From the NCBI GenBank assembly GCA_017548065.1, contig JAFYNQ010000096.1, positions 1 through 43,053 on the forward strand: 43,053 nucleotides of DNA, read 5' to 3'. How positions within the stretch are numbered: the stretch's first letter is position 1; every line of letters starts with the position of its first letter. This document shows positions 8,157 to 38,936 of the stretch, in pieces. The position numbers were made by a program, and so were the translations under genes. The notes below the pieces were generated by a model. The model searched no databases, had not been told where the DNA came from, and saw only the letters and a list, made by a program, of their open reading frames with translations. The stretch is from Oscillospiraceae bacterium. GTDB lineage: Bacteria > Bacillota > Clostridia > Oscillospirales > Oscillospiraceae.

Positions 8157-11100
8157 TTATTCTGATTCTTCCTCGTCGTCTTCACCTACGGGAACGTCCT
8201 CCAAGGCTTCGGTGCGGCTGGTTTCATAGGTCATGACACCGTCTGCGCCGGAGGCAATATGGATATGTCCCTTGGTGGTATCCTGCAGGAGGGTAATACC
8301 TGCGGTATCAAAACGAGTGTATACCGCCGCAGGAGATTCAATGTAGCCGGTGGCTACCGCATACTCGGGAGATACCGCCTCCAGGAAATCCAGAGCGGAG
8401 GAGGTGTTGTGCGCATGGTGGGGGACCTTCAAAAGATCTGTATCCAACAATTCAGGATCTGTCCACTGCATCAATCTTGCCTCACCGGTGCTGCTGTACA
8501 GATCGCCTACAAACAGAGAGCTATGCTCGCCGTAGTCAAAGCGTACCACGATGGAGTTATCGTTGATATCCAGGCCGCCGGTGATCTGCACATCGCCAAC
8601 ACCGGGCAGCGGCCACAGACAAGTCATCTTTACCTCACCAAAGTACATCACGTCGCCTCTGTTGATGGTGCGGTAAGGAATACCAAACTCCTCGCAGGCC
8701 ACGGGTACACGGTAAGCGCTGAAGGACTCGGGATCGTTGCCGCCACGGTAGATGACCTCACCGATGGTAATGGTCTGCATAAAGCCGGAAGCCATCAGGG
8801 ATGCCTCGTGGAAAATACCGTTTTGGTGATCCTCATGGGGATGGCTGATCATAACGTAGTCCAGGTAGGAAATGCCCATGCGCTGCAGATTCTGTACCAG
8901 GATCTTTGCGCTGTACACCCAGGAGGAGTCAATGAGCATGGTCTGTCCGTTGGGGAACACCACCAGGCAACAATCACCGGATTTCTTGGGGTACTTGGAG
9001 GTGGGCTTAAATACATAACCCTCGCTGGAAAGGAAATAATAGTGGATCTTGCCATCTGCCTTTGCCGCCTCTACCACATCGTAGTTCCAGGCATTGGCAT
9101 ATTTGTCGTTATCCTCTGTATCATAACGATCCAGCACATCAGCGCTGGTAGCAACACGGGTGGTTTCCCAATTTACCATAACCGTACGGTAGGCACGGTA
9201 CATTTCTGTGTAAGCCAGCTTCTGGGGTGTGGAAAGATTGTACCACTCTACATCAATGGCAGCTGCCTGCGCCTTCATGTCGGTGCTGACCACACCGCCC
9301 AGGAGCATGGTGCCGTCTGTCAATGTCACGTAAGCTGCGGCATAAACAGACGTTACGGCATTGGCTTCATTCTGCGCATCGGTGTTGTCCTTCTTCATGA
9401 CACCGGACAGCAGTGTACTGAAGCCGGTAGCGCCGTAAGGCTGTACTGTATAAAGGCTGGTGGTTTCAAAATTGTGGACAGTTGGTGCTTCCGCAGCATT
9501 CATAGCCACGCCCATTTTGTCCAGCATGGGGGTGATCAACTCGTCGCCCAGGACCTCTGCCTGGTAGTAGATACCGGCGCAGCTGGGACGCAGAACGGAA
9601 TTCACGATTTTCAGCTGCAGTCTGTGGAAGGAGATACCGGCTTCCTCCTGCAGCATGATGTAGTGATCCTCTGCCTGGGGAACATCCGGGGTAGCGCCGG
9701 CGACCTTGCAGGTCACAGTGCCGGTGAGCTTGCCGTATTTACCGTCGGCAACGGTGAAATCATCTGTTGCGTTGTCAGCGCAGACCAGTGTGCCGGTGCC
9801 GTCAATGTTGCCGGAAACGGTATAGCCGTTCAGTTCCACATACACCGTGCCGGTAACGGTGGCAGCATCTGCCACATCCTGCAGAAGCACCAGCTTGTCG
9901 CCGGCAGTATATGCCGCCACAGCTGCGCCAAAGCCGGCATACGCTGCAGAAGTGCCGTCTTCCTTCAGGCAGACCACCTGCGCACCCTCACCGGTAGCCA
10001 CCAGGCGGCCGTCAACAGCGTGCCACTTGTCGGCGCCGGAGTTGGAAATGGTAATACCCTTTGTCACATTGCCGTAACCAATGGTGTAAGCGCCATTAAA
10101 GGAGGGCGTGGTGATGCGCGCAGTGCCGCAAAAATCATCTGCCACTGTGACACGTTCTGCATAGGCAGGAGAGTAATCCGTGTTGCCAAAGCGGATATTT
10201 GTCACCTTACTCTCACCGCCCAGGGTGATGGTTGCGCAAGCCAGAATACAGGGGCCGGTGGTGGAGGTACCGTCAGGAATGGCGATACTGCTGCCCACCT
10301 CGCCGCCGTAAAGACCAATGTGGGACACACCGCCGGAAACTGCAGCGCCGTAAATATTTGCGCCACGCTTGGCAGCGCCGCCGTAGACTTTGCCACCGTA
10401 CATATTAAAGGTACCGATTACGTACAAAACGCCGCCGTAATTCACGCAGGCACGTCCGTCGGTGGGATATTCATAGGTCAATGTGCCGCTGTAAAGGTTT
10501 ACGGTGTTGCCGCCGTAAATATACAACGTGCCGCCATGCTTGGAGGACGTACTCACCGGGCCATGACCCACGATCTTGCCGTTACCCACAGTGTCCATCA
10601 GGTTCAGCGTACCGTCACTGACCACGAAGGCGCGGTCGGCAGTCACGGTCTTGCCATACATATCAAAGCAGACATAATCGCTGCCGCTGAGGCTCTTAAC
10701 AGACATGTAGGCGCTGTCGCCTTCAAAGGCTGCACGGTGGTGACCGAAGCTCATACGGGTAGCTGTTGCCAGTCTTTCCTCGTCCCACAGCTCCCACAAA
10801 ACCTCTGTTTTACAAACCGGGCAATAACCGGCTTCGTACTCCTTGGGAACGATGTCACCGATCAGGCTGCAGCGCAGTGCATCACCACGGACACACAGCT
10901 TCATATCATCTGCATCCACCTTGATCTTTGCGCCGGAGAGGTCTGCATTGTCGGAAACACCCACCTCATAGCCGTCCACAAGATATTTGGAGCTGCCGGC
11001 TGCCAGGGTGAAGCTGCCGGTGTAAGCGCCGGAAATCTTCAGGGGCTTTGCGGAAAGGTTATTAAACTTCACTGTGCCCAGCACCGCAGAGCCGGAGAGG

Positions 11101-12125: not shown

Positions 12126-15100
12126 TCAGGGAGCCACGGTGTACTGAGATTGGGTGATCTCCAGGGGATTTGCCAGGGCATTGTTCACAGACTCCAGGAT
12201 GATAGCCTTTTCCGCATCTGTAATGGGACGGTCTGTGTCACTCTTGGTAGTACGGAAAAAGGCTACCGGAATGGCATCCAGCTTGATCTCCTCCAGGCGG
12301 TCAACACCTGCAATGGTGCAGTACCATACATAGGCAGCGATGACTCTTCCCAAATCCGTATTGTGGTAGTAGTCACGGTGCAGATCCTTTTGGGTCAGGT
12401 AGCTGGTGTCTGCATTGAGCATTGCTGTACCGGCAGGGATAATGTAGGTAAAGCTGTTGTCTGTAAAGACATATTTCCCCGTATTTTCCAGAACAGCATT
12501 GAAGAAAGGCACACGGCCGCCGTGGCGCTCAATGGCAGAAACATAGCCGTTTGACTTATTGGGATAGGTGCTGAGCAGATCCGGGTCATCCGGGTTTACC
12601 CAGGGTATATGCCAACCGAACACTGCTTCGGGATTGCGCTTATTTTGGTTTACATAATTTTGCACAAACTGGATATTGCCGTTGGTAAAGTAGGTTTCCT
12701 TATCCGAACGCAGATCATCCTCATGCAAGACAATAATATCCCAATCTGTATATTGCAGACCCTCGTACATGGTGGTACCGGGATAGCGGACAGCCGGCAC
12801 ATCCGGGGTCAAGGTGCTGCTGATATACAGTGCGTAAGCATCGGTATTATTCTGAATGAAGTCCACATGTTGGTTCATTTTGCAGCCTGAGTAGTACAAA
12901 ATGCCAATGACCAGTTCCTGATCGTAGCCTTCCGCTGCAGCGATCAGGTTCAGCATATGGATAGCATCCACATCTGTGGAGTTACCGATGGACAGCACCT
13001 TCAAGGGGCGGACAGAAGGCGTACCGTTGATATCTGCCATCAGGTTGTACAGGCTCCAGTTCTTCATGGTATCCGGGTCCATATTGTACAGCTCCTTCAT
13101 CAGGGTCTTTTGTCCCTCTGTCAGTCTGGGCCAAATGTGATCCACATTCCTCAGAACATCTGCCATGCTGTAGCCCACGTTCTGATTGCCCATGATGACA
13201 GTGCCTTCTTCCGTTCCGTCATCCAGCACAGCATAGGCTGCTGCATAGATGGACTGCAGACCACGCTCCCAGTTATCCCCATCCTTCCGCAGGATGTTTT
13301 CAATCATTACGCCGGTCTTCGCCTCGCCACTGACGAAGCTGTCGGCAGCAAAGGCGGTGTACAAAGTATCCTCGTCGGAGGCAAAGTCACTTCCGGGCAT
13401 ATCCTGAACACTGACCGCCACACCGCAGGACATGATCTTTTCCTGCAAAACCGGATCGCATTCCCACACTGCACGGTAATAAATACCGGCGCAGGCGGTA
13501 CGCACAGAGGCATGGGTGATACCAATGCCCAAACGGTGGAAAGAAATACCGTTATCATTTTCAATTGTGATGTACTGATTGCCGTTGGGCGCAAGGAACG
13601 CAGGCGCCACCGCAGGTCCGTTGACAACTGCGCTGCCGAAGCTCTCATAGGTATCGTTTGCGCTGTCAAAGCCATAGAGCTTGCCGCTGCCGCCGGCAGT
13701 CAGTACAGAGCCGTTGAGATCCACCACAACATCATCTGTGATTTCAACGGTATTTTCCGGCGCATAAAGGCGGATATAGTAGTCTTCCGTGTAGGCATCC
13801 ACCGCCCCCTGGGCAACCGGGTACCAGGTAGGCTCACCGGTGGCACGGTCTATCAAGGCAGCGCCTGCCAGTGTCAGGGTGTCCTTCTCCGACTGCACCA
13901 ACATGGCCATATTGTAATTTCTTACGTAGAGCTTGCCGTTCAGTTCAGTACAGAAGGTATTGAGCAGCTCCCGATTTACTTCCAGCTGGGCAAGCCGCAC
14001 ACCCGACAGACTCATTACCAAGGTGCTGTCAAAGGCAGGTTCCACCGTCATATATGCCAAGTCACCCAACTGCAGGTCATCGTCTCCGTTTTTCACCTTG
14101 CCGCCGGCAATGTGGCATTTCCCCAGCTTCAGATTGCCGGTGGCGTAAATATTGCCGCCGTTGGTGGTTGCTCTGCCGCCAATGATCTGGGGCGCAGCAA
14201 TGGCATCGGTGAGATCGTTATCGCCGATGTAGGTATAGTTCTTATCTATATTTTCCTCTTTTTCAATATAGTATTTTCCGGCATTGGCATGGATGTTGCC
14301 GCCATCGGCGCTGTTGGCAACACCGGCATACAGCTTACCGCCATACACATTGAAAACACCGTTATTGATATAGCCATTGCCACCGCTTTTACCCACGCCA
14401 TTATACAGCAGACCATCATACATGGTGGTTTTACTATTGGTTGCCGAATGGTACAGATTGCCACCGAAGTTGGCTGCTGTACCCTGGGAGATAATGCCGC
14501 CTCGAATGGTCAGCAGTGAGCTTGTGCCGCCGTCATTGTAGAGATTCGCGCCGTTATTTGCCTTGCCGTTCAAAACAAGGCCGTTTTCAATATTGACCTT
14601 TGCGTATTCCATAATGATGTTGCCACCACCGCCGGTGGCTACGCCATCACGGATCACACCGCTAAACATATTCAGCTGCGCCTGGGGGCTGGCTTTGGTG
14701 CCCTGCAGGACGATCGTGCCGCCCTTGGCAGCGGTTGCGCCCATAATCAGACCGCCGTAAACATTGACCTTTCCGTTATCGGCATAGATAACGCCGCCTT
14801 CACCGGTGGTTACAGTATCGGTATTGGCAGCCGGCCCCAGAACACCGTCATACAGATTCAAAGTGCCGGTCACATAGAAAGTCGCACCGTTTGCTTCCGT
14901 GGCAGTTGCCGTGGTGAACATGCGCTTGGCAGAAGACACAGAAGATAGAATGGACAGCTTACCTGCCACCTGATAAGGTGTTGCCGGCTTGATGCCGCCG
15001 GAGATCAGATTTAAAACGATATCCACGCCGGTGCCAATGGTCAGACCGGCAGAACCCTCCGGCAGTTCGGTGGTAGAGGAGGTATAGTAGTGGCCGGAGC

Positions 15101-16406
15101 TTGCAGTTGATGGAGTATACCGACTCCATATCACCTCTTGCCCACAGTGCGGACAATAGCCGTTGCCGTCCGTTGTGCCAACAAGAGCGCCCTCTTCCAC
15201 CTTCAGTCCATAGCGGCTGGCAGGGGTCAGGTAGCCTTTTTCCAGGTACTCCGACACATTGGGAGATACACTGGCATCGGTCATGACACCGTCGCCCTGC
15301 AGAATGATATCTGCACCCTCGGTCAGATCCTTGACCGTCAGGATGTTCTCCTTCACCAAGGTCAAGCCTTCATAGTCGCAGTGGTTAATGACCGGTGCGC
15401 CGGAGAGAGTGGCGTCCGTCTTGAAATAGACATTTCCCCGGATGGTGCCGCCGGTGATCTCAACGCTGCCGTTATAGGCCGCAATGTTGCCGCCGGAGCT
15501 ATCCGCCTGACCGTTTTCAATGATACCGCCGGTAATCAAAAGCTGGGCGACATCGCCGGAGGAATAGATATTGCCGCCACGTCCCTTGGGCGCATAGCCG
15601 CCGGTGATCAGGCCACCGGATACGTGCAGTTTACCCAGGTTATAGATGCTGCCACCGTGGGATACGCTGGTACCGCCCATAACCGTGCCGCCGAACACAT
15701 TCACAACGCCGGTCTCCGACACATAGAAAGTGCCGCCGAAATTAGCACTGCCGCCTAAAATCATACCGTCATAGATGTTAACGTTGCCTGCGCAGTAAAT
15801 GGCAGAGCCGTTTTTCGTATAATCTGTCTGCACAGTAACGCCGGAGCCATCCACAATGCCGCCACGCATTTCAAATGTGCCGCCATTTTCCACAAAGATA
15901 ACGCCGCCGTCTCTCAGTCTGTTTTTCTGCGCATTGACAAGAGCGCCACTGTGCAGCTGCAAAACACCATTGGTACGGACATAGATCGTGCCACCGTCAT
16001 CGCCTCTTGCCGTGCCGACGATCTGACCGCCGCCTACCGTATCCATAACAGCAAAGGTGCAGTGGTCAAACACATAGAAGGCACGGGTATTGGAGGTTGT
16101 CTGTGTCATACTGTAGCCACGCAGGTCAATACACACATCCACCGCCAGTTCCTGCCCCTGGCCTTTGGCAGTACCGATCTTATATCGGGCTGTCATATCC
16201 AGTTCCTCGTCCAGGTAGTAGTGACCGCTGAGGACAGAGTTTTCCGTATCCTCTGCCACCCAGGGTGTCCAGTTACAAGCATCCCAGGCAGTATTACAGT
16301 GAGGACATACCTTGGGTGTCTCCACCACTTCTTCCGCAGAGGCAGGCAGCACGATCATACCCATGACCATTGCCACTACCAGCAGAAACGAAAAGAAACG
16401 CTTCAT
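12126..16406 (-). CDS. Paralog B: giant secreted beta-helix protein with divergent DUF4886 (SGNH-like) domain
   Basis: Secreted protein of 1426 residues; function unknown. Signal peptide 1-24 (MKRFFSFLLV...LPASA). CPHC at Cys34/37 plus Cys44, then SGHYYL; a second CPHC at Cys418/421, then SGHYY. Both are followed by beta-helix-like repeats with GGNIYSSG, GGSIYNLG and similar turns. The shared FHRL module (about 930-1130) precedes the C-terminal DUF4886 domain at 1133-1426. Block I is GNSTDVDAI with Ser1143; block V is DYYH with Asp1345/His1348. The central block reads VLHEDDLRSD where the other four DUF4886 paralogs have MQGG, so activity or specificity may differ. The C-terminus is TQSQYTVAP. 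ATG 16406 is chosen because AAGGAG lies 7 bases upstream; the ATG two codons earlier is too close to it. It pairs most closely with paralog C, next door. Confidence 0.88.
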   Translation of the reverse strand: MKRFFSFLLVVAMVMGMIVLPASAEEVVETPKVCPHCNTAWDACNWTPWVAEDTENSVLSGHYYLDEELDMTARYKIGTAKGQGQELAVDVCIDLRGYSMTQTTSNTRAFYVFDHCTFAVMDTVGGGQIVGTARGDDGGTIYVRTNGVLQLHSGALVNAQKNRLRDGGVIFVENGGTFEMRGGIVDGSGVTVQTDYTKNGSAIYCAGNVNIYDGMILGGSANFGGTFYVSETGVVNVFGGTVMGGTSVSHGGSIYNLGKLHVSGGLITGGYAPKGRGGNIYSSGDVAQLLITGGIIENGQADSSGGNIAAYNGSVEITGGTIRGNVYFKTDATLSGAPVINHCDYEGLTLVKENILTVKDLTEGADIILQGDGVMTDASVSPNVSEYLEKGYLTPASRYGLKVEEGALVGTTDGNGYCPHCGQEVIWSRYTPSTASSGHYYTSSTTELPEGSAGLTIGTGVDIVLNLISGGIKPATPYQVAGKLSILSSVSSAKRMFTTATATEANGATFYVTGTLNLYDGVLGPAANTDTVTTGEGGVIYADNGKVNVYGGLIMGATAAKGGTIVLQGTKASPQAQLNMFSGVIRDGVATGGGGNIIMEYAKVNIENGLVLNGKANNGANLYNDGGTSSLLTIRGGIISQGTAANFGGNLYHSATNSKTTMYDGLLYNGVGKSGGNGYINNGVFNVYGGKLYAGVANSADGGNIHANAGKYYIEKEENIDKNYTYIGDNDLTDAIAAPQIIGGRATTNGGNIYATGNLKLGKCHIAGGKVKNGDDDLQLGDLAYMTVEPAFDSTLVMSLSGVRLAQLEVNRELLNTFCTELNGKLYVRNYNMAMLVQSEKDTLTLAGAALIDRATGEPTWYPVAQGAVDAYTEDYYIRLYAPENTVEITDDVVVDLNGSVLTAGGSGKLYGFDSANDTYESFGSAVVNGPAVAPAFLAPNGNQYITIENDNGISFHRLGIGITHASVRTACAGIYYRAVWECDPVLQEKIMSCGVAVSVQDMPGSDFASDEDTLYTAFAADSFVSGEAKTGVMIENILRKDGDNWERGLQSIYAAAYAVLDDGTEEGTVIMGNQNVGYSMADVLRNVDHIWPRLTEGQKTLMKELYNMDPDTMKNWSLYNLMADINGTPSVRPLKVLSIGNSTDVDAIHMLNLIAAAEGYDQELVIGILYYSGCKMNQHVDFIQNNTDAYALYISSTLTPDVPAVRYPGTTMYEGLQYTDWDIIVLHEDDLRSDKETYFTNGNIQFVQNYVNQNKRNPEAVFGWHIPWVNPDDPDLLSTYPNKSNGYVSAIERHGGRVPFFNAVLENTGKYVFTDNSFTYIIPAGTAMLNADTSYLTQKDLHRDYYHNTDLGRVIAAYVWYCTIAGVDRLEEIKLDAIPVAFFRTTKSDTDRPITDAEKAIILESVNNALANPLEITQSQYTVAP

Positions 16407-16458
16407 AAACATTCTCCTTCCGCACAGTTTTTAAACAAACTGCAACATTACAGGATTC

Positions 16459-20919: not shown

Positions 20920-20970
20920 AAACATTCTCCTTCCACGCAGTTTTATGCAAACTGCTCTATTACGCAATTT

Positions 20971-26096: not shown

Positions 26097-26149
26097 AGTG
26101 TGTTCCTCCTTTAAATTTCCAGGCATAAAGCCCACATTTTGACAGATAT

Positions 26150-26250: not shown

Positions 26251-26287
26251 GCAGTATCGGCAAGGGGTGCGGCTATTTAATCAAGCG

Positions 26288-26318
26288 AAAAAGCGCTGCC
26301 CGGGTGGGCAGCGCTTTT
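26288..26318. terminator. Terminator of paralog E
   Basis: Arms GCGCTGCCC and GGGCAGCGC, loop GGGT, flanked by five As (Ts on the minus strand) and four Ts. It follows the stop of the gene at 26330. Confidence 0.92.
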
Positions 26319-26329
26319 GGGAGGTTGTA

Positions 26330-29300: not shown

Positions 29301-31285
29301 TTGGCTACTGTGCTACCGTTGCTATCACTGAAGTAGCCGTTGGTGCTTTTGGCTTTGCCGCCCAGCAGCACACCGCCTTCCATGTTGAACACACCGGCAC
29401 TGTAGATATTGCCGCCGCAGGGTTCAACGGGAGAACTCTTGTAGGACTTGGCAGCAATACCGTCACGGATGATACCGCCATAAATATTGGTGACAGAACC
29501 GGCAGGAGCATAGAGAACACCGCCGTCCAGCACGCTCTTATCCTCTTCGCCGGACTTGACGGTACGGCTCAGCGTGCCGGAGTACATATTGAACACACCG
29601 GTCGCTGTACCCATGATAACACCACCATTGGCCATAAGGTGACCGGTGCCGGTGATGCAGCCACCGCCGATTGCATCCATAATAGACAACGTGCCATAGA
29701 GGTTCGCAAACTTATAGCCGGTGACGGTCAGCGTGTAACCGTTGGTATCCATGACATAGTCAACACCCGCATTGATAACCAAGAGTCTGGTACGGTTGGT
29801 AGTGCCTGTCAGATATGTGTGCCGGCTGTCAGCAATGGTAATATTGGCATTGGGGGCAGAGTTGTCAAATGCTGTCCAGGTCGCCTCTGCGCCGGACTCC
29901 CAGCAGTGGGGGCAGTAGCCGGTAGTACCCTGCTCTACCTTCAAAGCGCCGCTTTCGTCCACGGAAATATCGGCACGGACAGCATCCTTAAAGTAACCCA
30001 GGTACGCCTCGGGATTCTCAAGGACTTCGGTAAAGACGGGATCATGACGGTTGCCGTCAAGGTAAATTTCAGCGCCTTCTGTCAAGCCGGAAATATTGAT
30101 CACTTTATCATATTTCTGGTTGGCATCGGTAGCTCTTTGCAGACGCAGACCGTTGCCGTTACCCATGAGGATCTTGGGCGCACCGGAAAGCGTGAAGGAC
30201 TTAAAAAGGCCAATGGACATATCACCGTCAATGGTGCCGCCGGAGATATCCACCGCAACATTGGTGGCATTTACGAAAAGGTTGCCGCCACGGGTCTTGC
30301 ACGTACCGCCGGTGATATAGCCACCGGACATTGCAAAGGAGCCGGAGGTGCCGAAGCATACATTGCCGGAGGCACCGGCAGAGGCACCGCCCCGGATCGT
30401 ACCGCCGGAGATATTCACATTGGATGCCAATGCGTAGATATTGCCGCCATAAACATCCGCATAGCCGTTTTCAATGACACCGCCGGAAATGTTCAGGGTA
30501 CTGGACTTTTCCAGGTAGATGTTACCACCGGTGCCTTCAAAGTTCTGGTACTCGGTGGTGCTGCCTACTTTTAAGAGCTTGCCGCTGCGAGAAATACCGC
30601 CGGTGATGGTACCACCATAGACATTCACATTCGCTGCAGTCGCAAAAATCGTGCCGCCAAGGGGCGCATAGTTGGTCTTGCTCACAAGATGGGGAACCAC
30701 ATCGCCGCCGATAAGCTTACCGCCATGCACATTCAGCGTTGCGCCATTGGACAGGTAGATCAGGCCGCCGTAGGACACGAGGTCGGTAGTGGTCACAATA
30801 CGGCGCAGTGTGCCGCTGTAAACATTCAGCTCACCGGAGCCGTCCTTGGAATTTGCATTTTTACCCATCATGGCAAATGCGCCGTGGGCATTGGATGCGC
30901 CGGTCACAGCAAACTCACCGCCGCCAACGCTGTCCATAATGGAGAAAATACCGTAGATCAGGAAGGGGCGCAGACCGGTAACGGTATACGTACGTCCACG
31001 CAGATCCAGACAGATCACGTTACGCATCAGGTCATCATCCAGGTTGATGTTGATCTGTGCAGACTGATCCGGAATGTCTTCTGTCAGGTAATAGTGACCG
31101 GTACGAGGGCCGGTACTCATAGGATCCCAGGGCAGCCACTGGCTCTCGGGGATCATCTGCTTACAGTGCTGGCAATAACCAGTTTCCACTGCAGCCTCTG
31201 CCTCTTCCTGGGCATAGGTGGGGAATACCATCATGGATACCACCATCACCACAGCAAGAAGCGCTGCGAGCAAACGCTTTTTCAT
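26330..31285 (-). CDS. Paralog E: giant secreted beta-helix protein with DUF4886 (SGNH-like) domain
   Basis: Secreted protein of 1651 residues; function unknown. Signal peptide 1-25 (MKKRLLAALL...FPTYA). CQHC at Cys38/41, then TGHYYL; a second CPHC at Cys458/461. Beta-helix-like repeats (GGNIYLEK, GGNIYALA, GGNLFVNA, GGNIYVNA) occupy about 120-370 and 530-1040. The shared module of about 200 residues (FHRLGLAITGVSLRP, YYKATWECD, RGTMPIYAAPYAV) precedes DUF4886 at 1357-1651: GHSLAVDS with Ser1367, MQGGVFE, DYVH with Asp1570/His1573. The C-terminus is TQSQYTVAP. ATG 31285 follows AGGAGG by 8 bases. Long stretches are identical or nearly so to paralog D, including the last 30 or more bases of the gene, which points to recent duplication or gene conversion. 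Confidence 0.88.
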   Translation of the reverse strand: MKKRLLAALLAVVMVVSMMVFPTYAQEEAEAAVETGYCQHCKQMIPESQWLPWDPMSTGPRTGHYYLTEDIPDQSAQININLDDDLMRNVICLDLRGRTYTVTGLRPFLIYGIFSIMDSVGGGEFAVTGASNAHGAFAMMGKNANSKDGSGELNVYSGTLRRIVTTTDLVSYGGLIYLSNGATLNVHGGKLIGGDVVPHLVSKTNYAPLGGTIFATAANVNVYGGTITGGISRSGKLLKVGSTTEYQNFEGTGGNIYLEKSSTLNISGGVIENGYADVYGGNIYALASNVNISGGTIRGGASAGASGNVCFGTSGSFAMSGGYITGGTCKTRGGNLFVNATNVAVDISGGTIDGDMSIGLFKSFTLSGAPKILMGNGNGLRLQRATDANQKYDKVINISGLTEGAEIYLDGNRHDPVFTEVLENPEAYLGYFKDAVRADISVDESGALKVEQGTTGYCPHCWESGAEATWTAFDNSAPNANITIADSRHTYLTGTTNRTRLLVINAGVDYVMDTNGYTLTVTGYKFANLYGTLSIMDAIGGGCITGTGHLMANGGVIMGTATGVFNMYSGTLSRTVKSGEEDKSVLDGGVLYAPAGSVTNIYGGIIRDGIAAKSYKSSPVEPCGGNIYSAGVFNMEGGVLLGGKAKSTNGYFSDSNGSTVANADKTYLGRGGNLYVSGTATISGGHIIGGSAAYGGNVYTTTNLAITGGVIFDGVVNDELNSNDWGGNVYYTGAKDATIENAIIRGGKTPNLGGNINLYNSTLTITDSYIADGIAGIDGSNGRGGNIYVNATSKLYLNNTIVSNGWAYQYGGNIYSERGSLVQMNGGLVSCGTTETGFGGSLYLTAFHMIGGRVVGGTSKKHVAGNIYVPANSADYLIVEPAANGTPAVIAGGTAGKMGGNIYVDKNASATFTGAIICNGTGDTLNTNSATNYDNLYAESGTKVTLDNCTVSGIEADTIYGNGVVSYGELTLKGNTNVVNDEKKACAYIGAAGSLIVDESFSGVFAVAFHKDHFADVAEPQGTTLAEKDTATGVFSGTLLLDGFNGSDYYDYGYPAIFAESGDSKLYIASVAVVDPAKDTTVWYKDNNVAAAALTPSSYMKLFKNENELTVAGDVVVDLNGNNLNVTGSGTVCGFDTKNDDYTAFGNMTVADTVEVAPMHVAPNGRRYIALETETGISFHRLGLAITGVSLRPATSGVYYKATWECDAVLQEKIDSYGIAVSTVDMPGADFAADSDTLYTTLAKESFESGVAANSALIENILKSGEDNQTRGTMPIYAAPYAVIGDLIVVGDDNAPTMGGVIYSLKMVLQGINRVWPKLNDSQQESIRQLYALDADVLDTWDLYNITADINGTPAVRPLKVLTLGHSLAVDSGHMLNLVADAEGYNQPMEIATLYYSGCPLYKHVNYIKENAGVYQLYVSSTTTPDKPPVIIKGVNMKYALEYMDWDVIVMQGGVFEIAHDETYKDGNIQFIQDYVNQHKTNPNAVFAWHMPWACPTDKSLRDQYPYSPNTYYTSYEAFGDDRTTMYNELVKCVGNNIVTDDSFVYLIASGTAIENALSSYLEETDLHRDYVHVSDLGRVISSYTWYCTLAGIDHLDEIKLDAIPAQFFKSTTGTADRVLTDMEKAIILESVNNALANPLQMTQSQYTVAP

Positions 31286-31433: not shown

Positions 31434-33374
31434 ATGGTTATTTATAAGATGCACTGCGATCACACCATTGATTTTGCAGCCGAAGAACTAAAAAAATATC
31501 TGCGTATGATGACGCCGGATATTGGCGATATTGCCATTGAAAGCAAGGCGGATGCAGCAGACGGCTTCCGTCTGGGTCTGCTGTCAGATTTCGGCATTCC
31601 TTTTGAAGGAAAAGATCCCAAGCTTGACGATATCGTCCATATTGAAGCAGATGCAGAAGGCGGCATTCTGGCCGGCTCTAATCCCCGAAGCGTACTGTTT
31701 GCGGTGTATCGCCTTTTAAAACTAAATGGCTGCCGCTTTTTCTTCTCCGGCCCAGAGGGTGAATACATCCCTATGCAGCCCCTTGCGCCTACCAGCTATC
31801 ACAAGCTGGCAGATCACCGTCTTCGTGGACATACCATTGAGGGCTGCCCCTCCATGGAAGAGGTTCTGCACTATATTGATTTCCACGCCAAAGAGGAACT
31901 GAACACCTTTGGTCTTTACGGCATTGACATCTATCACCGTCGCAACTATGCCCACTGGCACAACGAAGCCAACCGTCCGGCAGAGGCCTATGACGGTGAC
32001 CTGGCCGAAACTCAATGGCGCGCTTTGTATGAGAGCGAACTCAAAAAGCGTGGAATGCTTATTTGCAGCGGTGAGCATGATATTGTTCCCCTTGCCATGG
32101 GCTTTGATTTGGCTGCCCGGCATCTGTATATTTCCGGTGAAAAGACGATTGACGAGGCTTCCCTCCCCTATCTTGCCATGCACGACGGAAAGCGTGGTCT
32201 TTATGAAACCAACGACATTCTCTGGTCGCAGCTTTGCTACTCCAACCCCAAGGTACGTACCCTGCTGGCGGAGCAGGCGGTAAAAATGGTTCGTGAGCGC
32301 CCGAGCCTTGACTATTTCGGTGTCGTCTTTGCCGACGGCAGCAAGAACCATTGCGAGTGTGAGGAATGTCAAAAGAAGCGCCCCAGTGATTGGTACATCA
32401 TGCTTCTGAACGAGATCGATGCCAAGTTTACAGAAAATAACATCTCCACAAAGATCCTGTTCAGTTTCTATGTAGATACCATGTTTGCGCCCACCACAGA
32501 AAAGCTGAACGATCCTGACCGTTTTCTTTTCCAGTTCTGTCCCATTGCCCGTTCCTATCTGGAGAGCATTACCGAGGATATGGTCATTCCCGAACCCCTT
32601 CCCTTCCGCTACAACGACTGGGATCGCCCCAAGAACACCAGGGAAGCTTACTCTCTGTTCTGCGAGTGGAAAAAGATGTTCCCCGGACCTTATTCCGTAT
32701 TTGAGTATCACTTCTGGAAGCATCAGTACCGGGATCCCGGTTCTATGGACTTTGCCCGTCGGGTCTACGAGGACACCGTGTCCCACCGTTTCATGGAGAC
32801 CTGCGGCTGCATGCAGGACGGCTCTGTAAAGAGCTTCTTCCCCAACGGCTTTGCCGAGTACATCTATGCCGAGACTCTGATCAACCGGGAGCTGGACTAC
32901 CAAAAGGCGCTGGAGGATTATTACACTGCCCTTTACGGCGATGACCGGGATACAGTGCTCACCTATCTTACCGCCATCACCGAAGCATTTTCCTTTGCTT
33001 ACATGGAGGGTGAATTGTCCACCAAGCCTCAGCATGGCACCCACTACAACCCGGAACGGGAAGCCCATTTCCAAAAAGTTCCCCAGTTGTGCCGGCAAAT
33101 GCGTGATTATATTGAAAAGCGCAGCCCCGAAAAGCGTCGCACCCGTGGCGTTGCATGGCAGCTGCTGCTGCGGCACACCCAATACTGCGAGGGTCTGGCT
33201 GCGGTCATGGCAGAAAAGTGCGTAGGCAATGATCCGATTGCCCTGGAGAAGCTTATGGCATTCCTCCAGGACTTCGGCAAATACGATTACGAGATCGGCC
33301 GCTATTTTGACATCAGCCTCATGGCCTATTCCCACATTCCCGTTATCAAGCAGATGCCCGCCATTGAACAATAA
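31434..33374 (+). CDS. DUF4838 domain protein, glycosidase-like
   Basis: Cytoplasmic protein of 646 residues with no signal peptide. The first 100 residues (FAAEELKKYLRMMT...LAGSNPRSVLFAVYRLLKLNGCRFF) resemble the non-catalytic N-terminal domain seen before TIM barrels of GH20/GH67-type enzymes. The middle carries the DUF4838 hallmark ADGSKNHCECEECQKKR near 300-320, a CxCxxC cluster, followed by DWYIMLLNEID. The C-terminal 150 residues are helical. From family knowledge, some DUF4838 proteins were reclassified as GH163, endo-beta-N-acetylglucosaminidases on complex N-glycans; whether this member shares that activity is inference. GGAGG at 31421-31425 precedes the ATG by 8 bases. It is the only plus-strand gene inside the paralog array and is divergent from paralog E. 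A bidirectional terminator separates it from paralog F. Confidence 0.82.
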   Translation: MVIYKMHCDHTIDFAAEELKKYLRMMTPDIGDIAIESKADAADGFRLGLLSDFGIPFEGKDPKLDDIVHIEADAEGGILAGSNPRSVLFAVYRLLKLNGCRFFFSGPEGEYIPMQPLAPTSYHKLADHRLRGHTIEGCPSMEEVLHYIDFHAKEELNTFGLYGIDIYHRRNYAHWHNEANRPAEAYDGDLAETQWRALYESELKKRGMLICSGEHDIVPLAMGFDLAARHLYISGEKTIDEASLPYLAMHDGKRGLYETNDILWSQLCYSNPKVRTLLAEQAVKMVRERPSLDYFGVVFADGSKNHCECEECQKKRPSDWYIMLLNEIDAKFTENNISTKILFSFYVDTMFAPTTEKLNDPDRFLFQFCPIARSYLESITEDMVIPEPLPFRYNDWDRPKNTREAYSLFCEWKKMFPGPYSVFEYHFWKHQYRDPGSMDFARRVYEDTVSHRFMETCGCMQDGSVKSFFPNGFAEYIYAETLINRELDYQKALEDYYTALYGDDRDTVLTYLTAITEAFSFAYMEGELSTKPQHGTHYNPEREAHFQKVPQLCRQMRDYIEKRSPEKRRTRGVAWQLLLRHTQYCEGLAAVMAEKCVGNDPIALEKLMAFLQDFGKYDYEIGRYFDISLMAYSHIPVIKQMPAIEQ

Positions 33375-33419: not shown

Positions 33420-36400
33420 TTACTTTTCGTATTGGAAGGACACGGGAACGAAGATCTCGCCGTTGGGAGCAGTGACCTCCACGGTGACGTTATAGTCACC
33501 CAGCCTCAATGCCTCAAAAGCTGCCAGGATAGCGTCACTTTCGGCAGAAAAACTGTACTTTCTTGCCTTGCCGGACTTTACATCCGCACGGTCAAAATAC
33601 ATGGTGTACAGCTCGGCGGTCTTTCCGTCGGCACGCTCTGCCTTGATCTTCACCATGCTCATAGGGTAGTTACACTGCACAGTGCCTGCCACCAGGGTGT
33701 TTACATCGTCGCAGCTCTTTTGGGAGAAGCTGACAGTGGTCTTTGCATAAGACTCCAGTCCTGCAAACTCTGCAGTGGTCACGGGGATATATGCCATATC
33801 ATACAGCTGCTTGAAGGTGAATTTCTGATGGATGCGGCCGCTGTAGTAATAGGTTTTGCCGTCCTCTCCCACCACCTCGTAGAACTTGCTCTCTGTGGCA
33901 CTTGTACCTGCAGCCTGATCCTGAATATACACATAGCTCTTGGAGGCATTGATGGTGCCGTCTGCATTTCGTTCCACCACCGGCTCTTCAATTACCATCA
34001 TGGCATGCTCCTTTTTGGAGGAGGTCACGGCATCTGCAGGCAGCATCTGTGCGTAGCACGCATAGATGGTCTCTGCGCCGTTAAGTTCGCAGATATCAAC
34101 TGTGCTGATATCGTAGTAGGAGCTGATGGCCTCCATATTGGGGAAGGTATAATTACCCACGGGAATGCAGCCGTACTTATAGACCATGTTGCTATTGATG
34201 AAGCTGCCAGTGAGGGAGTCGCACACCGTACTCCATGCCCACATCAGGCTGCCTGCGCAGGTGTTGCCCAGGGTATCGTTAAGCCACTGTCCGTCACCTG
34301 CCATACGCAGACGTCCGGTCTCAAAATCATAATACTCCAGCCAAACGAACAGATTTGTCTGTCCGTCGGCATAGGGCAGACCGCAATAGGTAGTGTCTGC
34401 ATCGTAGTGATAGTCCTTGTCGCTGACGGCGCCCTGTTTATTGTAGTTGATCTCGGTGGGATTGCTCCACTGAATGCTCAGCATATCCCGCATAGCCTGC
34501 ACAGCTGTCTGCCGCAGCTGTGTTGTGGTGGCATTCTCTGCCAGCGCATAGTTCGGGCGGCTTGTCATAGGCTGAGAAACCACAAATTCCGTTTCGGTGG
34601 TATAGGCAGACTGGGTCAGTTCTGTGGGTGTTTGCAGCGCATTGTTCACTGCTTCCAGGATCACGGCCTTTTCTCTTTCCGTGATCACTCTGTCCTGGGT
34701 CTTGTCAGAGGTGGAACGGAGGAATGCCATAGGGATAGCATCCAGCTTCACCTCCTCCAGCTGCTGAATGCCGGTGAGGGTGCAGTACCAGGTGTAAGCG
34801 GCAATGACACGTCCCAGGTCTGTTGCGTGGGCATAGTCACGGTGCAGGTCATACTCCGTCATGTAGCTGCTCATGGCATTTTCAAAGGCAGTGCCGGAGG
34901 GGATCAGATACACAAAGCTGTCATCTGTGAGGATGTACTTCTCCACACGCTGCTGAATTGCCTCATAAAGCGCAATTCTGTCGTTGTTAAAGTTCTTGTA
35001 GCCGTTTTTATAGCCGTTGTCTGCCTCGCTCTTGCCGGTCTGTGTCTCGTAAGAGGTCTGCAGATCGTACTCTGTAGCAAATGCCCAGGGGGTGTGCCAT
35101 GCAAAAATTGCTTTGGGATTTGTCTTATGCTGGTTTACATAATCTTGAATCTTCTGAATATCGCCATTGGTGAAGGTGGCATCCTCCGCCAGTTCCCAAA
35201 CACCGCCCTGCATGACGATAATGTCCCAATCGTCATAGACGATGGCATCCTTCATGGTGACGTCATCCAAAATAACGGGAGGCTGGTCAGGTGTCTTGGA
35301 GCTGCTGATATACAGGCTGTAGTCAATGCGGTCTCCCTCCAGGTTATCCACATGACGGTACAGCGGACAGCCGGAATGGTACAGCGTACCGACGATCATT
35401 TCCTCAGTGTAGCCCTCTGCGCCGGCAACCAGGTTCAGCATGTGGTTGGAGTCCACTGCCAGGGAGTGACCCAGGGTCAGCACCTTCAGGGGACGGTCGG
35501 AGACAGTGCCGTAAAATTCCGCTGTCATGTTGGGCAGCTGCCAGCAGCGGAAGGTCTCTGTATCCAGCTGATACAGTTCCGCAACCCCTGCCTTTTGGGT
35601 GTCGCTGAGCTGCGGCCAGATGCGGTCAATGCTCTGCAGGATATCGATCAAAGAGCAAGCGGCATTGTCGCCCATCAGGGTAGTGCCGTCCGTCAACACT
35701 GCATAGGTCGCTGCGTAAATGGGCATTTCTCCACGGGCAGCGTTGTTTTCCCCTGCCTTCAGGATCTCCTGCACCAGCGCACCGTTGACCGTTTCACCGC
35801 TGATGACAGCATTGGAAGCCGTGTACAACACAGTTTCGTCACTGGCAAAGCCGCTGTCGGGGGCATGGGCAAGGCTTACTGCCATGCCGTAGGAAGCGAT
35901 CTTTGCTGCCAGCACCCGGTCGCACTGCCAGACAGCCTTATAGTACACACCGGCTGCGGAGGGACGGAGGGACACGTTTGTCAGCTCCATGTCCAGTCTG
36001 TGGAGGGTGGTAACATCATTTTCCCTTACGGCAACGTACTGACCGCCGTTGGGCGCTGCGCAGGTAGCTTCCACATTTCCGCTGGTAACAGTGCCGTTGC
36101 CTGCGTAGTCATCATTTTCCGTATCAAAACCTGTCAGCTTGCCGCTGCCGGTGACCGTCAGGTTCTTACCGTTGATATCCACAACCGCATTCTTCTCAAG
36201 ATTCACTGTGCTGTCAGCAAACAGCTTGACATACTGTGTATTTTCACAAGCTGCCAAAGCCGCCTGGGCATCGGCAAACCAGGTAAGGCTCTCCCCTTCT
36301 GCCACAGCCGCAGTGCCGGGGAACAGCATCCCCTCTGCATCGGCAAAGAGCTGTGCGCCATCCAGGTTTTCCATGCGCAGTGTGCCGTTCACAGCACCTG

Positions 36401-38936
36401 CTGCGGTAAAGAGACTATAGATCGGTGCGCCGTAGGTATCCAGTGTATAGGCAGTCAGCGCATTGCCGTTGTTGGCATGACCGAAATAGATGCTCACATC
36501 CCCGGTAAAGTCCTCTTTCACCGTAAATACCGGGGTGTTACTTGCGCCGGTCTTGCCAATATAAATATCCTCGCCGTAGCCACGGGCGCCGAAGCCGCCG
36601 TAGATCTCTGCCGCACCAAGCTCCATGTGACCGAAGAGGGCAATGTTGCCGCCGACACCGGAGTAGGAATAGGTGTTTGAGGTCTCCCGGCTGTAGCCGT
36701 CAGCGATCACAAGCTGGGCGCCGTTTTTCGCACCCACCTCCAGGATATTGCCTGCATATTTCTTTGCCACCGTACCGGCTGTTGCATCGGCTGCATAGTA
36801 ACCGGTGTTGACATACAGGTTACCGCCGCCCCATTTTGCAATGCCGTCGGTGATCTTGCCGCCGTAGATATAGGATTTGCCGTTATTAAAATAGATATTG
36901 CCGCCCCACTCGCCGGACACACCGCCGGTGATCCAACCGCCGTTGATGGTCTGCGTGGAGCTGGTAGAGCCTGCGTAAAGGTTACCGCCACGGGTCTCGG
37001 CCTTGCCACCGTAAATAACGCCGTCATTCATCACAAAGGTGGTGCCGGTACCGGGGTAGATGTTGCCGCCCAAGGCAGAAGAGCCCTTCATGACGATACC
37101 GCCGTTCATGTTCATAGTGCCTTTGTAGATCTCAATATTACCGCCGTTTTTCACGGAGCTGCCGCCGGTGATCAGGCCGCCGTACATGTTCAAAGTCGCC
37201 TTATCACCGATGTACATAGAGCCGCCGGTATAGGTGTCTGCAGTATCGGTGCAAGCGCCGTCACGGAGACAGCCGTTATAGAGATTGACTGTGCCGCCGC
37301 CATAGAGGTCTATAACACCGCCGCGTCCGGTGGTGGCCGTTCCGCTGAAGCTGCCGCCGTAAATATTCAGGGTGCCGTTGCCACGCAGCAGAGGGCCGTC
37401 ATTGGTGGAACTTGTTGCCACACGGTCCAGCACACCGCCGCCGGTGACGGAGGAAATAAAGGTAAGTGTGCCGGCATAGACCATACGGGCGGTGGTATCC
37501 ACCTTGCCGCAAAGGTCAATGACCACATCACTACCCTCTTCCACGGTTCCGGGATTAACACCGGTCAAATCCTGGGCATAGTAGTGACCACTGGTAACCG
37601 TACCGGCCGTATAGGCCGTCCAGGTGACGGTCTCATCACAGTGGGGGCAGTAGCCGGTATCGGTGGCTGTGCCTGTGAGGACACCGTCGGTAACTGCCAA
37701 TGCAGTACGGGTGCAGGGCAGGATCATGCCGGAGGCCAGCTCTGCGGACACGTCTGCGGTGGACAGCGCACCCTCACCTGCCACCACGATGCTTGCGCCC
37801 TCTGTCAGGTTGAACTGTGCAGCCTCTGACAGCTTTACACCCTGGTAGTCATAGCTGTTGACCACGGCTGCGCCGTTAAAGGTCGCCTTGCCGAGGCAAC
37901 AGAAGCCGCCGGTGATCTTACCGCCGTTGACGGTAATAGGGCCACCGTTCACAAACATATTGTCACTGTCGCCCAGGGCAAAACCGTTTTCAATCACGCA
38001 GTCCGTCAGCGTCACCGGCTTTGCCTGGAAATAGATGTTGCCGCCGGCATCTCCTGCCGTACCGCCCATGACCTTACAACGGGTCATCACCGTGGGACCC
38101 ATGGTAAAAATATTACCGCCACGGCCGGTAGCCTTACCTCCCATGATCACTGTATCGGTGATGGTGTACTCGGTGGAGGCGCTACCATAGATGCTGCCGC
38201 CACGACGGGCGCTACCACCCTTGAGCACAGAATTTTCAATTCTGGCAGAACAAGCGCCGGAGAGGAACAAAATACCGCCCTCATCCACGCTGCCTGCTGT
38301 CTTTTCCAGCTCGGAGTTGATAATTGTCAGCTTTGTGCCGGCAGCCCCGTTGTACATACCGCCGTCGGTGGGAGACGACACTGTCTCACGGTCACCGGCA
38401 TCGTTGGACACAAAACGTACACCGTCCAATGTCACATCGGTTTTGCCGGATGTAAAAATAGTGCCACCGGTGCTTTTGTAAGTACCGTTTGCAAAGATAG
38501 CGCCGTTGGTGATCACCAGCTTACTGCCGGCATAAACACCGAACATACGGTTATTGGAACTGGTGTCGGTAATGGTGTGACCGTTCAGGTCCAGCACCAC
38601 GCTTACCGGAAACTGCTCCGACTGCGTTTCGCTGTAGTGACCCACATAGAACACCGCATACTGATTGCTTTTTCCGTCAGCCTTGATGTTCATATCTGCC
38701 ATAACACGAACACCCACAGTTTTGCCGATGTACTCGGTTCTGTTGATGCTCTTACCGTTGGTGCTCACCCGGTTTGTAAAATAGGCAAGCAGCTGCTCGG
38801 GGGTATTGGCCTCCAGCCAGATGTCTGCTTGGTATTTTTCCGCAGGTGCGATCGCCTTCTCTGCAGACACCGGCAGAACGACCATACCCATGACCATAGC
38901 CAACGTCAGCAACAGCGCAAGAATCCTTTTTTTCAT
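33420..38936 (-). CDS. Paralog F: giant secreted beta-helix protein with DUF4886 and papain-like C-terminal domains
   Basis: Largest paralog, 1838 residues, secreted; function unknown. Signal peptide 1-25 (MKKRILALLL...LPVSA). Unlike the others it lacks the first CxxC module and begins with a different segment (about 26-100) before the first beta-helix (about 110-400). CPHC at Cys430/433, then SGHYY, opens the second helix (about 500-830). The shared FHRL module follows, then DUF4886 at 1148-1453: GHSLAVDS with Ser1158, MQGGVWE, DYAH with Asp1367/His1370. After TQSAYTTETE comes an extra domain of about 385 residues with a papain-fold-like pattern: NTCAGSLMWAW (Cys1560), KEHAMMVI (His1644), YVYIQDQ (Asp1673). 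It ends in a beta-rich stretch without an anchor. ATG 38936 is chosen because AAGGAGG lies 9 bases upstream. Confidence 0.85.
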   Translation of the reverse strand: MKKRILALLLTLAMVMGMVVLPVSAEKAIAPAEKYQADIWLEANTPEQLLAYFTNRVSTNGKSINRTEYIGKTVGVRVMADMNIKADGKSNQYAVFYVGHYSETQSEQFPVSVVLDLNGHTITDTSSNNRMFGVYAGSKLVITNGAIFANGTYKSTGGTIFTSGKTDVTLDGVRFVSNDAGDRETVSSPTDGGMYNGAAGTKLTIINSELEKTAGSVDEGGILFLSGACSARIENSVLKGGSARRGGSIYGSASTEYTITDTVIMGGKATGRGGNIFTMGPTVMTRCKVMGGTAGDAGGNIYFQAKPVTLTDCVIENGFALGDSDNMFVNGGPITVNGGKITGGFCCLGKATFNGAAVVNSYDYQGVKLSEAAQFNLTEGASIVVAGEGALSTADVSAELASGMILPCTRTALAVTDGVLTGTATDTGYCPHCDETVTWTAYTAGTVTSGHYYAQDLTGVNPGTVEEGSDVVIDLCGKVDTTARMVYAGTLTFISSVTGGGVLDRVATSSTNDGPLLRGNGTLNIYGGSFSGTATTGRGGVIDLYGGGTVNLYNGCLRDGACTDTADTYTGGSMYIGDKATLNMYGGLITGGSSVKNGGNIEIYKGTMNMNGGIVMKGSSALGGNIYPGTGTTFVMNDGVIYGGKAETRGGNLYAGSTSSTQTINGGWITGGVSGEWGGNIYFNNGKSYIYGGKITDGIAKWGGGNLYVNTGYYAADATAGTVAKKYAGNILEVGAKNGAQLVIADGYSRETSNTYSYSGVGGNIALFGHMELGAAEIYGGFGARGYGEDIYIGKTGASNTPVFTVKEDFTGDVSIYFGHANNGNALTAYTLDTYGAPIYSLFTAAGAVNGTLRMENLDGAQLFADAEGMLFPGTAAVAEGESLTWFADAQAALAACENTQYVKLFADSTVNLEKNAVVDINGKNLTVTGSGKLTGFDTENDDYAGNGTVTSGNVEATCAAPNGGQYVAVRENDVTTLHRLDMELTNVSLRPSAAGVYYKAVWQCDRVLAAKIASYGMAVSLAHAPDSGFASDETVLYTASNAVISGETVNGALVQEILKAGENNAARGEMPIYAATYAVLTDGTTLMGDNAACSLIDILQSIDRIWPQLSDTQKAGVAELYQLDTETFRCWQLPNMTAEFYGTVSDRPLKVLTLGHSLAVDSNHMLNLVAGAEGYTEEMIVGTLYHSGCPLYRHVDNLEGDRIDYSLYISSSKTPDQPPVILDDVTMKDAIVYDDWDIIVMQGGVWELAEDATFTNGDIQKIQDYVNQHKTNPKAIFAWHTPWAFATEYDLQTSYETQTGKSEADNGYKNGYKNFNNDRIALYEAIQQRVEKYILTDDSFVYLIPSGTAFENAMSSYMTEYDLHRDYAHATDLGRVIAAYTWYCTLTGIQQLEEVKLDAIPMAFLRSTSDKTQDRVITEREKAVILEAVNNALQTPTELTQSAYTTETEFVVSQPMTSRPNYALAENATTTQLRQTAVQAMRDMLSIQWSNPTEINYNKQGAVSDKDYHYDADTTYCGLPYADGQTNLFVWLEYYDFETGRLRMAGDGQWLNDTLGNTCAGSLMWAWSTVCDSLTGSFINSNMVYKYGCIPVGNYTFPNMEAISSYYDISTVDICELNGAETIYACYAQMLPADAVTSSKKEHAMMVIEEPVVERNADGTINASKSYVYIQDQAAGTSATESKFYEVVGEDGKTYYYSGRIHQKFTFKQLYDMAYIPVTTAEFAGLESYAKTTVSFSQKSCDDVNTLVAGTVQCNYPMSMVKIKAERADGKTAELYTMYFDRADVKSGKARKYSFSAESDAILAAFEALRLGDYNVTVEVTAPNGEIFVPVSFQYEK

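What the first reader, a model, noticed from the sequence alone, without database searches (positions are those of the whole stretch)
8157..38936. Array of six giant paralogous secreted proteins with interchangeable C-terminal effectors
Six minus-strand genes (1268, 1426, 1440, 1665, 1651 and 1838 residues) share one plan: signal peptide, CxxC/GHYY module(s), glycine-rich beta-helix repeats, a common module of about 200 residues, then a catalytic-looking C-terminus. Together they take about 65% of the window. Four end in DUF4886, one in a metallo-beta-lactamase fold, one in DUF4886 plus a papain-like domain. Such a run of duplicated scaffolds with swapped enzymes suggests a diversifying surface system, for binding and processing a complex polymer or a host or rival cell surface. 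I know of no named system with this layout.
Basis: partly seen in the sequence, partly recalled or inferred. Interest (0 to 1): 0.9.

Follow-up and report, generated by a model that had tools for sequence, protein, structure and literature searches.

The report
Duplicated secreted enzymes sharing one module
Six giant secreted proteins in an uncultured, probably gut-dwelling bacterium turn out to be one cluster of a family of about 45 genes, roughly 8% of its draft genome, that all carry the same undescribed protein module, mostly joined to degrading enzymes of different kinds.

Summary
The array is real: six minus-strand genes fill 65% of the window with the lengths and domains described. Five carry DUF4886 (an uncharacterised SGNH-hydrolase family), one a ComEC-like metallo-beta-lactamase fold. 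The "common module" (CM, about 180 aa, no credible Pfam or PDB match) occurs in 49 ORFs of this draft genome (my estimate: 46-47 genes; 8.2% of the assembly). By Pfam it is joined to five unrelated hydrolase types (DUF4886, M14, MBL fold, metallophosphatase, Exo_endo_phos), by weaker evidence to three more (ceramidase-like, PHP-like, Cys-His tail). CM was found in 14 of 136 genomes of its genus (Oscillospiraceae by nearest named relatives); outside the genus only one borderline match appeared in the samples searched. Two other species hold large sets, with CM also on GH43, GH95, GH123, GDSL and M23 enzymes. On the CM tree five window genes are local duplicates, the sixth is another lineage, and enzyme swaps occurred elsewhere. 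No sortase, SLH, cohesin or dockerin match was found in this 89%-complete genome. Best reading: a secreted enzyme set held by CM at a common place (envelope, matrix or substrate).

The parts
8157..11978 (-). Giant gene 1 (1268 aa from the Met at the Shine-Dalgarno): signal peptide, two CxxC modules, Gly-rich repeats, CM, MBL-fold domain
9141..9671 (-). Common module (CM) of gene 1, a different CM group from the other five
8346..9029 (-). Metallo-beta-lactamase-fold domain with HPHEDH motif, most similar in PDB to ComEC domains
12126..16412 (-). Giant gene 2 (1426 aa): two CxxC/GHYY modules, repeats, CM, DUF4886
13029..13583 (-). CM of gene 2
12159..13010 (-). DUF4886 (SGNH hydrolase superfamily) of gene 2; GNST where the other four have GHSL
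16597..20967 (-). Giant gene 3 (1440 aa): same plan, DUF4886
17500..18060 (-). CM of gene 3
16630..17481 (-). DUF4886 of gene 3
21099..26135 (-). Giant gene 4 (1665 aa): same plan, DUF4886
22008..22565 (-). CM of gene 4
21132..21989 (-). DUF4886 of gene 4
26330..31285 (-). Giant gene 5 (1651 aa): same plan, DUF4886; nearest paralogue of gene 4
27236..27793 (-). CM of gene 5
26363..27217 (-). DUF4886 of gene 5
33420..38963 (-). Giant gene 6 (1838 aa): degenerate first module without CxxC, second module, repeats, CM, DUF4886, extra C-terminal tail
35514..36047 (-). CM of gene 6
34620..35495 (-). DUF4886 of gene 6
33423..34619 (-). C-terminal tail with candidate Cys-His hydrolase (NlpC/P60-like by motif, recalled), shared with two proteins elsewhere in the genome
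   Evidence: no family match
31434..33374 (+). DUF4838 gene on the opposite strand that interrupts the array
39053..40747 (-). Flanking GH20 beta-hexosaminidase-like gene, not among the CM matches

Best explanation
The array is one tandem cluster of a genome-wide set of secreted modular proteins defined by an undescribed module of about 180 aa (CM). Shown by sequence: nearly all CM proteins with an intact start have a Sec-type signal; each has one CM; CM is joined to five unrelated hydrolase families by Pfam and to three more by weaker evidence; the family grew mainly by duplication with some exchange of catalytic domains. Inferred: the Gly-rich repeats are a beta-helical stalk, and CM retains the enzymes at a common place (cell envelope, secreted matrix or substrate). 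There DUF4886, MBL-fold, phosphoesterase and peptidase domains strip esters, phosphodiesters and peptides from complex gut polymers (mucin-like glycans, plant polysaccharide or bacterial wall) that the organism then uses. It would work like a dockerin-tagged or surface-tethered enzyme set, but it is not one by the tests made here.
For: 49 CM ORFs (read stop to stop) total 201,123 bp, 8.2% of the assembly. Labels of the 49: DUF4886 18, M14 9, ceramidase-like 5, MBL 3, PHP-like 2, Cys-His tail 2 (gene 6 is counted under DUF4886), calcineurin-like 2, Exo_endo_phos 1, LRR 2, no enzyme found 3, fragments 2. In G033, 11 of the 21 fetched CM ORFs were scanned and 8 had families: GH43, GH95, GDSL, metallophos, M23, LamG, LRR, propeller. 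In G888, 6 of 21 printed were scanned and 6 had families: GH123, GDSL, metallophos, LRR. The plan modules-CM-DUF4886 recurs in G857. Sec-type signal in 45 of 47 ORFs with an intact start; 0 of 49 with LPxTG or a strongly hydrophobic C-terminal segment. No sortase, SLH, cohesin or dockerin match in G000. Partner labels need 13 changes on the CM tree (minimum 9, shuffled mean 23.9), with two well-supported sister pairs of unlike architecture. dN/dS below 1 in 12 of 12 segments.
Against: No binding or localisation evidence exists. CM lies in the middle (26), at the C-terminus (19) or near the N-terminus (2) of 47 ORFs, which suits a binding module or spacer as well as an anchor. No receptor or scaffold was identified. 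Three whole giants with CxxC modules lack a CM match (L170-L172), and G864 has 24 CxxC-module matches without being among the CM genomes. G033 has CM together with 7 cohesin and 4 dockerin matches. Carriers are mostly incomplete drafts: among genus genomes at least 90% complete and at most 5% contaminated only 1 of 40 has CM, and the three rich genomes are 89, 82 and 71% complete, so absence of sortase or cohesin in G000 is not final. No structure could be predicted. Several labels are weak: PHP (E 0.029, and motif), calcineurin in L067 (motif only; no Pfam), ceramidase-like (via a protein itself under the Pfam cut-off; no Pfam), 6 of 9 M14 (own profile) and one of the three M14 scanned is under the cut-off.
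Confidence: 0.55

Rival explanations
1. CM is a glycan-binding (CBM-like) module that targets each enzyme to its substrate, with no common anchoring site.
For: CM occurs in proteins with GH43, GH95, GH123, LamG, F5/8 and a sub-cut-off CBM35 match in other species. Its position in the protein is free. The CM tree partly follows enzyme type.
Against: CM also sits on esterase, nuclease and peptidase types that would need different ligands. No CBM family matched CM itself (32 CM scanned).
Confidence: 0.3
2. CM is only a structural spacer or processing domain between the repeats and the catalytic domain, and its abundance follows from gene duplication.
For: It sits between repeats and DUF4886 or MBL in the six window genes. 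Local duplication explains five of the six.
Against: 19 of 47 CM lie at the C-terminus with at most 40 residues behind them. CM occurs with LRR, M14 and ceramidase-like partners. dN/dS over CM is 0.14-0.27 in three pairs.
Confidence: 0.15
3. The giants are adhesins comparable to the adhesin-like proteins of gut methanogens, and the C-terminal domains are secondary.
For: Gly-rich repeats, giant size and 8.2% of the assembly. The abstract of PMC11532034 reports more than 40 such proteins and over 10% of the genome in each of two methanogens.
Against: Catalytic motifs are mostly kept: the block-I serine in 11 of 18 DUF4886 segments by pattern and in the other 7 by eye (GSS, GGS, GQS or TSS), DxxH in 16 of 18, HxHxDH in 3 of 3 MBL. 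DUF4886 has the lowest dN/dS of the four segments in one of three pairs, CM in the other two. No C-terminal hydrophobic anchor.
Confidence: 0.2
4. A polymorphic-toxin-like system with exchangeable C-terminal toxins against rival cells.
For: Exchanged catalytic domains around shared modules. L078, a giant with CM near its N-terminus, has a sub-cut-off Hint_2 match near its C-terminus (E 0.03); Hint domains are known from such systems (recalled).
Against: Four gaps of 131-194 bp leave no room for immunity genes. The domains are esterase, phosphoesterase and peptidase types that also occur N-terminal to CM. No toxin family was among the Pfam matches of the own-genome proteins scanned.
Confidence: 0.03

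Closest known systems
Cellulosomal dockerin proteins of Ruminococcus flavefaciens FD-1 (PMC2930009; abstract and section list read)
   Same: One non-catalytic module shared by a very large secreted set (222 proteins there) that includes carbohydrate-active enzymes and peptidases, in a herbivore-gut bacterium.
   Different: CM is about 180 aa without paired DxNxDG loops (0 of 45 by pattern). This genome gave no cohesin and no dockerin match. CM is mid-protein in 26 of 47 ORFs.
Adhesin-like proteins of Methanobrevibacter smithii and Methanosphaera stadtmanae (PMC11532034; abstract and section list read)
   Same: Dozens of repetitive secreted proteins taking about a tenth of the genome; the paper has a section on a right-handed beta-helical domain.
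   Different: Those are archaeal and the paper has a section on a membrane-anchoring domain; these have no C-terminal hydrophobic helix and carry catalytic-type domains and CM.
DUF4886 (PF16227), SGNH hydrolase superfamily, PDB 4i8i
   Same: Catalytic-type domain of five window genes, 104-108 bits; phmmer of gene 2 gives E 2.7e-12 to 4i8i; block-I serine and DxxH kept in 5 of 5.
   Different: The review PMC9487903 (passages read) lists no known activity for this family. Here it ends, or nearly ends, proteins of 1400-1850 aa.
ComEC metallo-beta-lactamase domain; CbpE phosphorylcholine esterase
   Same: MBL domain of gene 1 matches ComEC chains (E 5e-9) and weakly CbpE (E 0.02) in PDB; HPHEDH kept.
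   Different: Fused to repeats and CM instead of a membrane transporter; scores far below the ComEC equivalog cut-offs.
Polymorphic toxin systems (PMC3482391; search listing with abstract start only)
   Same: Shared scaffolds with different C-terminal domains.
   Different: No room for immunity genes in the window array, hydrolase types common in nutrition, enzymes on both sides of CM.

Membership tests
DUF4886 / SGNH hydrolase superfamily (five window genes) | Profile match over the curated cut-off | tested here: met
   104-108 bits against 26.7 in 5 of 6
DUF4886 / SGNH hydrolase superfamily (five window genes) | Catalytic serine (block I) and DxxH (block V) | tested here: met
   5 of 5 window genes: G[NH]S and DY[VYA]H; the block names are recalled
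DUF4886 / SGNH hydrolase superfamily (five window genes) | Esterase or transferase activity | not testable with these tools
   PMC9487903 lists no known activity for DUF4886 (passages)
Metallo-beta-lactamase fold (gene 1) | HxHxDH motif and profile match | tested here: met
   HPHEDH; Lactamase_B 25.8 bits, cut-off 22.7
Right-handed beta-helix | Predicted or matched beta-helical fold | tested here: inconclusive
   Structure prediction switched off; no PDB profile match; sequence periodicity only, and not significant in gene 1
Papain-like / NlpC-P60 cysteine peptidase (tail of gene 6) | Profile match to the family | tested here: not met
   Two unrelated weak Pfam matches only, up to E 0.5; no PDB match up to E 1
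Papain-like / NlpC-P60 cysteine peptidase (tail of gene 6) | Conserved Cys and His | tested here: met
   C106 and H190 of the aligned tail invariant in the 3 aligned proteins
Cellulosome (cohesin-dockerin) | Dockerin modules on the enzymes | tested here: not met
   0 matches in G000; 0 of 45 CM with two DxNxDG loops
Cellulosome (cohesin-dockerin) | Cohesin scaffold in the genome | tested here: not met
   0 matches in G000, 7 in G033; G000 is 89% complete
Sortase- or SLH-anchored surface proteins | LPxTG plus sortase, or SLH domains | tested here: not met
   0 of 49 LPxTG; no sortase or SLH match in G000; one sortase match in G033
Polymorphic toxin system | Immunity gene downstream of each toxin | tested here: not met
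   Gaps of 147, 184, 131 and 194 bp between genes 1 to 5

The most novel reading that the evidence does not exclude
CM is the docking module of a previously undescribed multi-enzyme surface complex of Oscillospiraceae: a cellulosome-like system that needs no cohesin and dockerin, in which dozens of esterases, phosphoesterases, peptidases and glycosidases assemble through one new module on an unknown receptor.
Probability: 0.25. Interest if true: 0.88.

Novelty: new variant of a known kind. Interest (0 to 1): 0.62.

Why it matters
A module without a Pfam entry, sporadic within one genus and yet present on about 45 secreted proteins of one species, points to a large unexamined part of polymer digestion by uncultured Oscillospiraceae. 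If CM binds a common site, it gives a new protein-tethering principle and a handle on enzymes of unknown function such as DUF4886. It also shows how a lineage can build much of its secretome by duplicating and swapping enzyme domains around one module.

Tried and rejected
Scan of named genomes for CM: one peptide pattern only, 26 stretches matched, none confirmed. Viral contigs: 12 stretches matched, none confirmed. The PDB profile of CM gave only designed repeat proteins and an antibody at E 0.04-0.8, taken as chance; a Pfam scan of 32 CM gave 23 scattered weak families, the most frequent in 2 of 32, taken as chance. Shared regulatory motif upstream of 47 CM ORFs: no 8-, 9- or 10-mer exceeded the maximum of 20 dinucleotide shuffles. 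Recombination within the array: genes 2 and 3 are closest in the N-terminal parts (51-52% identity; 79/89 and 97/98), but the DUF4886 of gene 3 is closer to genes 4 and 5 (72-73%) than to gene 2 (54%); the conflicting split has only 60/56 support, so unequal rates are not excluded. Considered and rejected: six genes as one swap series, a polymorphic toxin system, a classical cellulosome. One CM match (C66:4697-4819, in a 64-aa frame) is not among the 49 ORFs because frames under 100 aa were dropped.

Full report
Observation. By eye, each has its own -10-like and ribosome-binding sequence upstream (sequences printed; no promoter scan was run). Pfam finds DUF4886 in five and an MBL fold in the sixth. 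The MBL domain is closest in PDB to ComEC and keeps HPHEDH. The gene 6 tail matches no cysteine-peptidase profile, but it is shared with L065 and L076 at 25-28% identity, with an invariant Cys (in NDCSG or NTCAG) and His. A plus-strand DUF4838 gene splits the array. Flanking genes are a GH13, a ceramidase-like protein, an AraC regulator, a transporter, a GH20 and a serine-dehydratase-like gene, and hrcA, grpE, dnaK and argG as recognised by eye, so the array looks chromosomal.

The real unit is genome-wide. A profile of the six common modules (A2) gives 50 matches in the window's genome (G000, 2.46 Mb, 126 contigs, 88.9% complete, 3.5% contamination). I fetched these places and found 49 ORFs of at least 100 aa with one CM each, totalling 201,123 bp read stop to stop, 8.2% of the assembly. 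Five are pieces at contig ends, so 46-47 genes is my estimate. Of 47 ORFs, two short fragments left out, 43 have at least 1000 residues. Other clusters exist: five CM genes on C43, four of them with a ceramidase-like N-terminal part, and three M14 genes on C52.

Partners. The 49 ORFs carry: DUF4886 18, M14 9, ceramidase-like 5, MBL 3, PHP-like 2, Cys-His tail 2 (gene 6 counted under DUF4886), calcineurin-like 2, Exo_endo_phos 1, LRR 2, CM near the N-terminus with no enzyme found 2, modules and CM only 1, fragments 2. Strength varies. Over Pfam cut-offs: DUF4886, MBL (3 of 3), Metallophos in L083, Exo_endo_phos in L068, M14 in 2 of 3 scanned; the other six M14 are by my own profile. PHP-like: HGELHDH motif and PDB E 0.029. 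L067: calcineurin-type motifs only. Ceramidase-like: phmmer from the window protein 4744-6201, E 8.5e-18 to 1.5e-6 for five proteins, that protein being itself under the Pfam cut-off (30.1 against 32.1). CM lies in the middle in 26, C-terminal in 19 and N-terminal in 2 of 47.

Distribution. With A2: 4 of 60 relatives including own. With A3, 43 rows: 1 of 391 class genomes (own) and 2 of 400 family genomes (own, and one borderline match at E 6e-4). With A10, which adds CM from G033, G016 and G014: 1 of 400 family genomes (own) and 14 of 136 genus genomes, but only 1 of 40 genus genomes of high quality. Large sets: G000, G033 and G888 had 63, 59 and 78 first-look candidates, of which 26 each were scored and matched; G885 had 8, G857 7, the other nine 1-3. 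The CxxC modules are found in 18 of 136 genus genomes, 10 of which are also among the 14 with CM. In G033, 11 of 21 fetched CM ORFs were scanned: 8 had families (GH43 twice, GH95 with F5/8, GDSL twice, metallophos, M23, LamG, LRR, a propeller), 3 had none. In G888, 6 of 21 printed CM ORFs were scanned: GH123 twice, metallophos, GDSL, LRR twice, one of these with DUF2927. G857 has the plan of the window genes, modules-CM-DUF4886 (L168). CM itself has no Pfam or PDB relative that I would trust. The nearest named genomes by HrcA are Oscillospiraceae/Clostridiales MAGs.

History. On the tree of 43 CM the five DUF4886 genes of the window group together (93/91); the MBL gene of the window joins the MBL gene of contig C93 (100/100) on the other side of a 100/99 branch. 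The partner label changes at least 13 times (minimum 9; shuffled mean 23.9), so most spread is by duplication with some exchange; M14 and PHP each form one group. The clearest exchanges are L067 (calcineurin-like) beside L068 (Exo_endo_phos), 100/100, and L066 (MBL plus DUF4886) beside L071 (DUF4886), 99/94. dN/dS is 0.13-0.51 in 12 segments of three window pairs, with dS up to 2.8 and so only rough; the repeats diverge most in two of the three pairs. A possible mosaic between genes 2 and 3-5 is suggestive only.

Mechanism. Shown: Sec-type signal in 45 of 47 ORFs with intact starts by a simple hydrophobicity rule; 0 of 49 with LPxTG or a strongly hydrophobic C-terminal segment. No sortase, SLH, cohesin or dockerin match in G000, so none of these anchors explains retention; other wall-binding domains were only tested through the Pfam scans cited. 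Inferred: repeats as stalk, CM as retention or targeting module, catalytic domains acting on esters, phosphoesters and peptides of gut polymers; GH20 and DUF4838 at the array, and GH43, GH95 and GH123 on CM in relatives, point to complex glycans. Against this: CM position is free, some giants lack CM (L170-L172), and G033 has both CM and cohesin-dockerin modules.

Known systems. Searches for DUF4886; dockerin with Oscillospiraceae; beta-helix adhesins; Faecousia; giant proteins; conserved C-terminal domains; type IX secretion with Oscillospiraceae; and lineage-specific expansion listed no paper whose title or abstract start describes this family. Four of the lists were capped (15 of 62, 15 of 42, 12 of 15, 10 of 20), and beyond listings I saw only PMC9487903 (passages), PMC2930009 and PMC11532034 (abstract and section list). 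The nearest kinds are dockerin-tagged enzyme sets and the adhesin-like proteins of methanogens. Verdict: a real, large, lineage-restricted family of secreted proteins around a new module; kind known, module and combination new as far as searched; role of the module open.

Noticed in passing
L063 and L064 (G000 contig C43, about 5600-27260): A second CM array: five CM genes in tandem, four with a ceramidase-like N-terminal part and CM at the C-terminus. The fifth (L064 2056-4251) follows a ceramidase-like frame (1-2052) after a single in-frame stop.
   Followed up: partly
L169-L173 (G000 contigs C17, C87, C69, C36): Giant ORFs (three whole ones of 2153, 2295 and 2872 aa, others cut) without a CM match: roughly 900 residues first, then several CxxC modules; no credible Pfam match in the three scanned. 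A parallel giant family in the same genome.
   Followed up: partly
G000 contigs C52, C66, C92, C76, C80 (ends): Contigs break at nearly the same CM positions (about 38-46), three of them at the end of an M14 gene, which suggests almost identical repeats among recent copies.
   Followed up: no
G000:C34:20452-24471: Four DUF4886 matches in a row in open frames of 347-361 residues, apart from the giants.
   Followed up: no
G033 contigs C11, C17, C54: Cohesin and dockerin matches lie close together in G033; one cohesin match lies in a 440-aa open frame as does a CM match beside it.
   Followed up: no
16768-21261, 22107-26114, 26237-30574 (+ strand): Antisense ORFs of 1335-1497 aa lie opposite the giants; probably a by-product of composition, since the sense frames show dN/dS below 1.
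   Followed up: partly
4744-6201 (+ strand): A secreted-looking ceramidase-like protein stands in the window without CM; it is a free-standing relative of the N-terminal part of the C43 array proteins.
   Followed up: partly
L077 and L078 (G000 contig C96): Two giants with CM near the N-terminus are almost identical over CM (end branches 0 and 0.05) but differ further on: L077 (cut) runs into CxxC modules, L078 has a sub-cut-off Hint_2 match near its C-terminus.
   Followed up: no
G864 (genus genome): Has 24 matches to the CxxC module but is not among the 14 genomes with CM, so the two modules can spread apart from each other.
   Followed up: no
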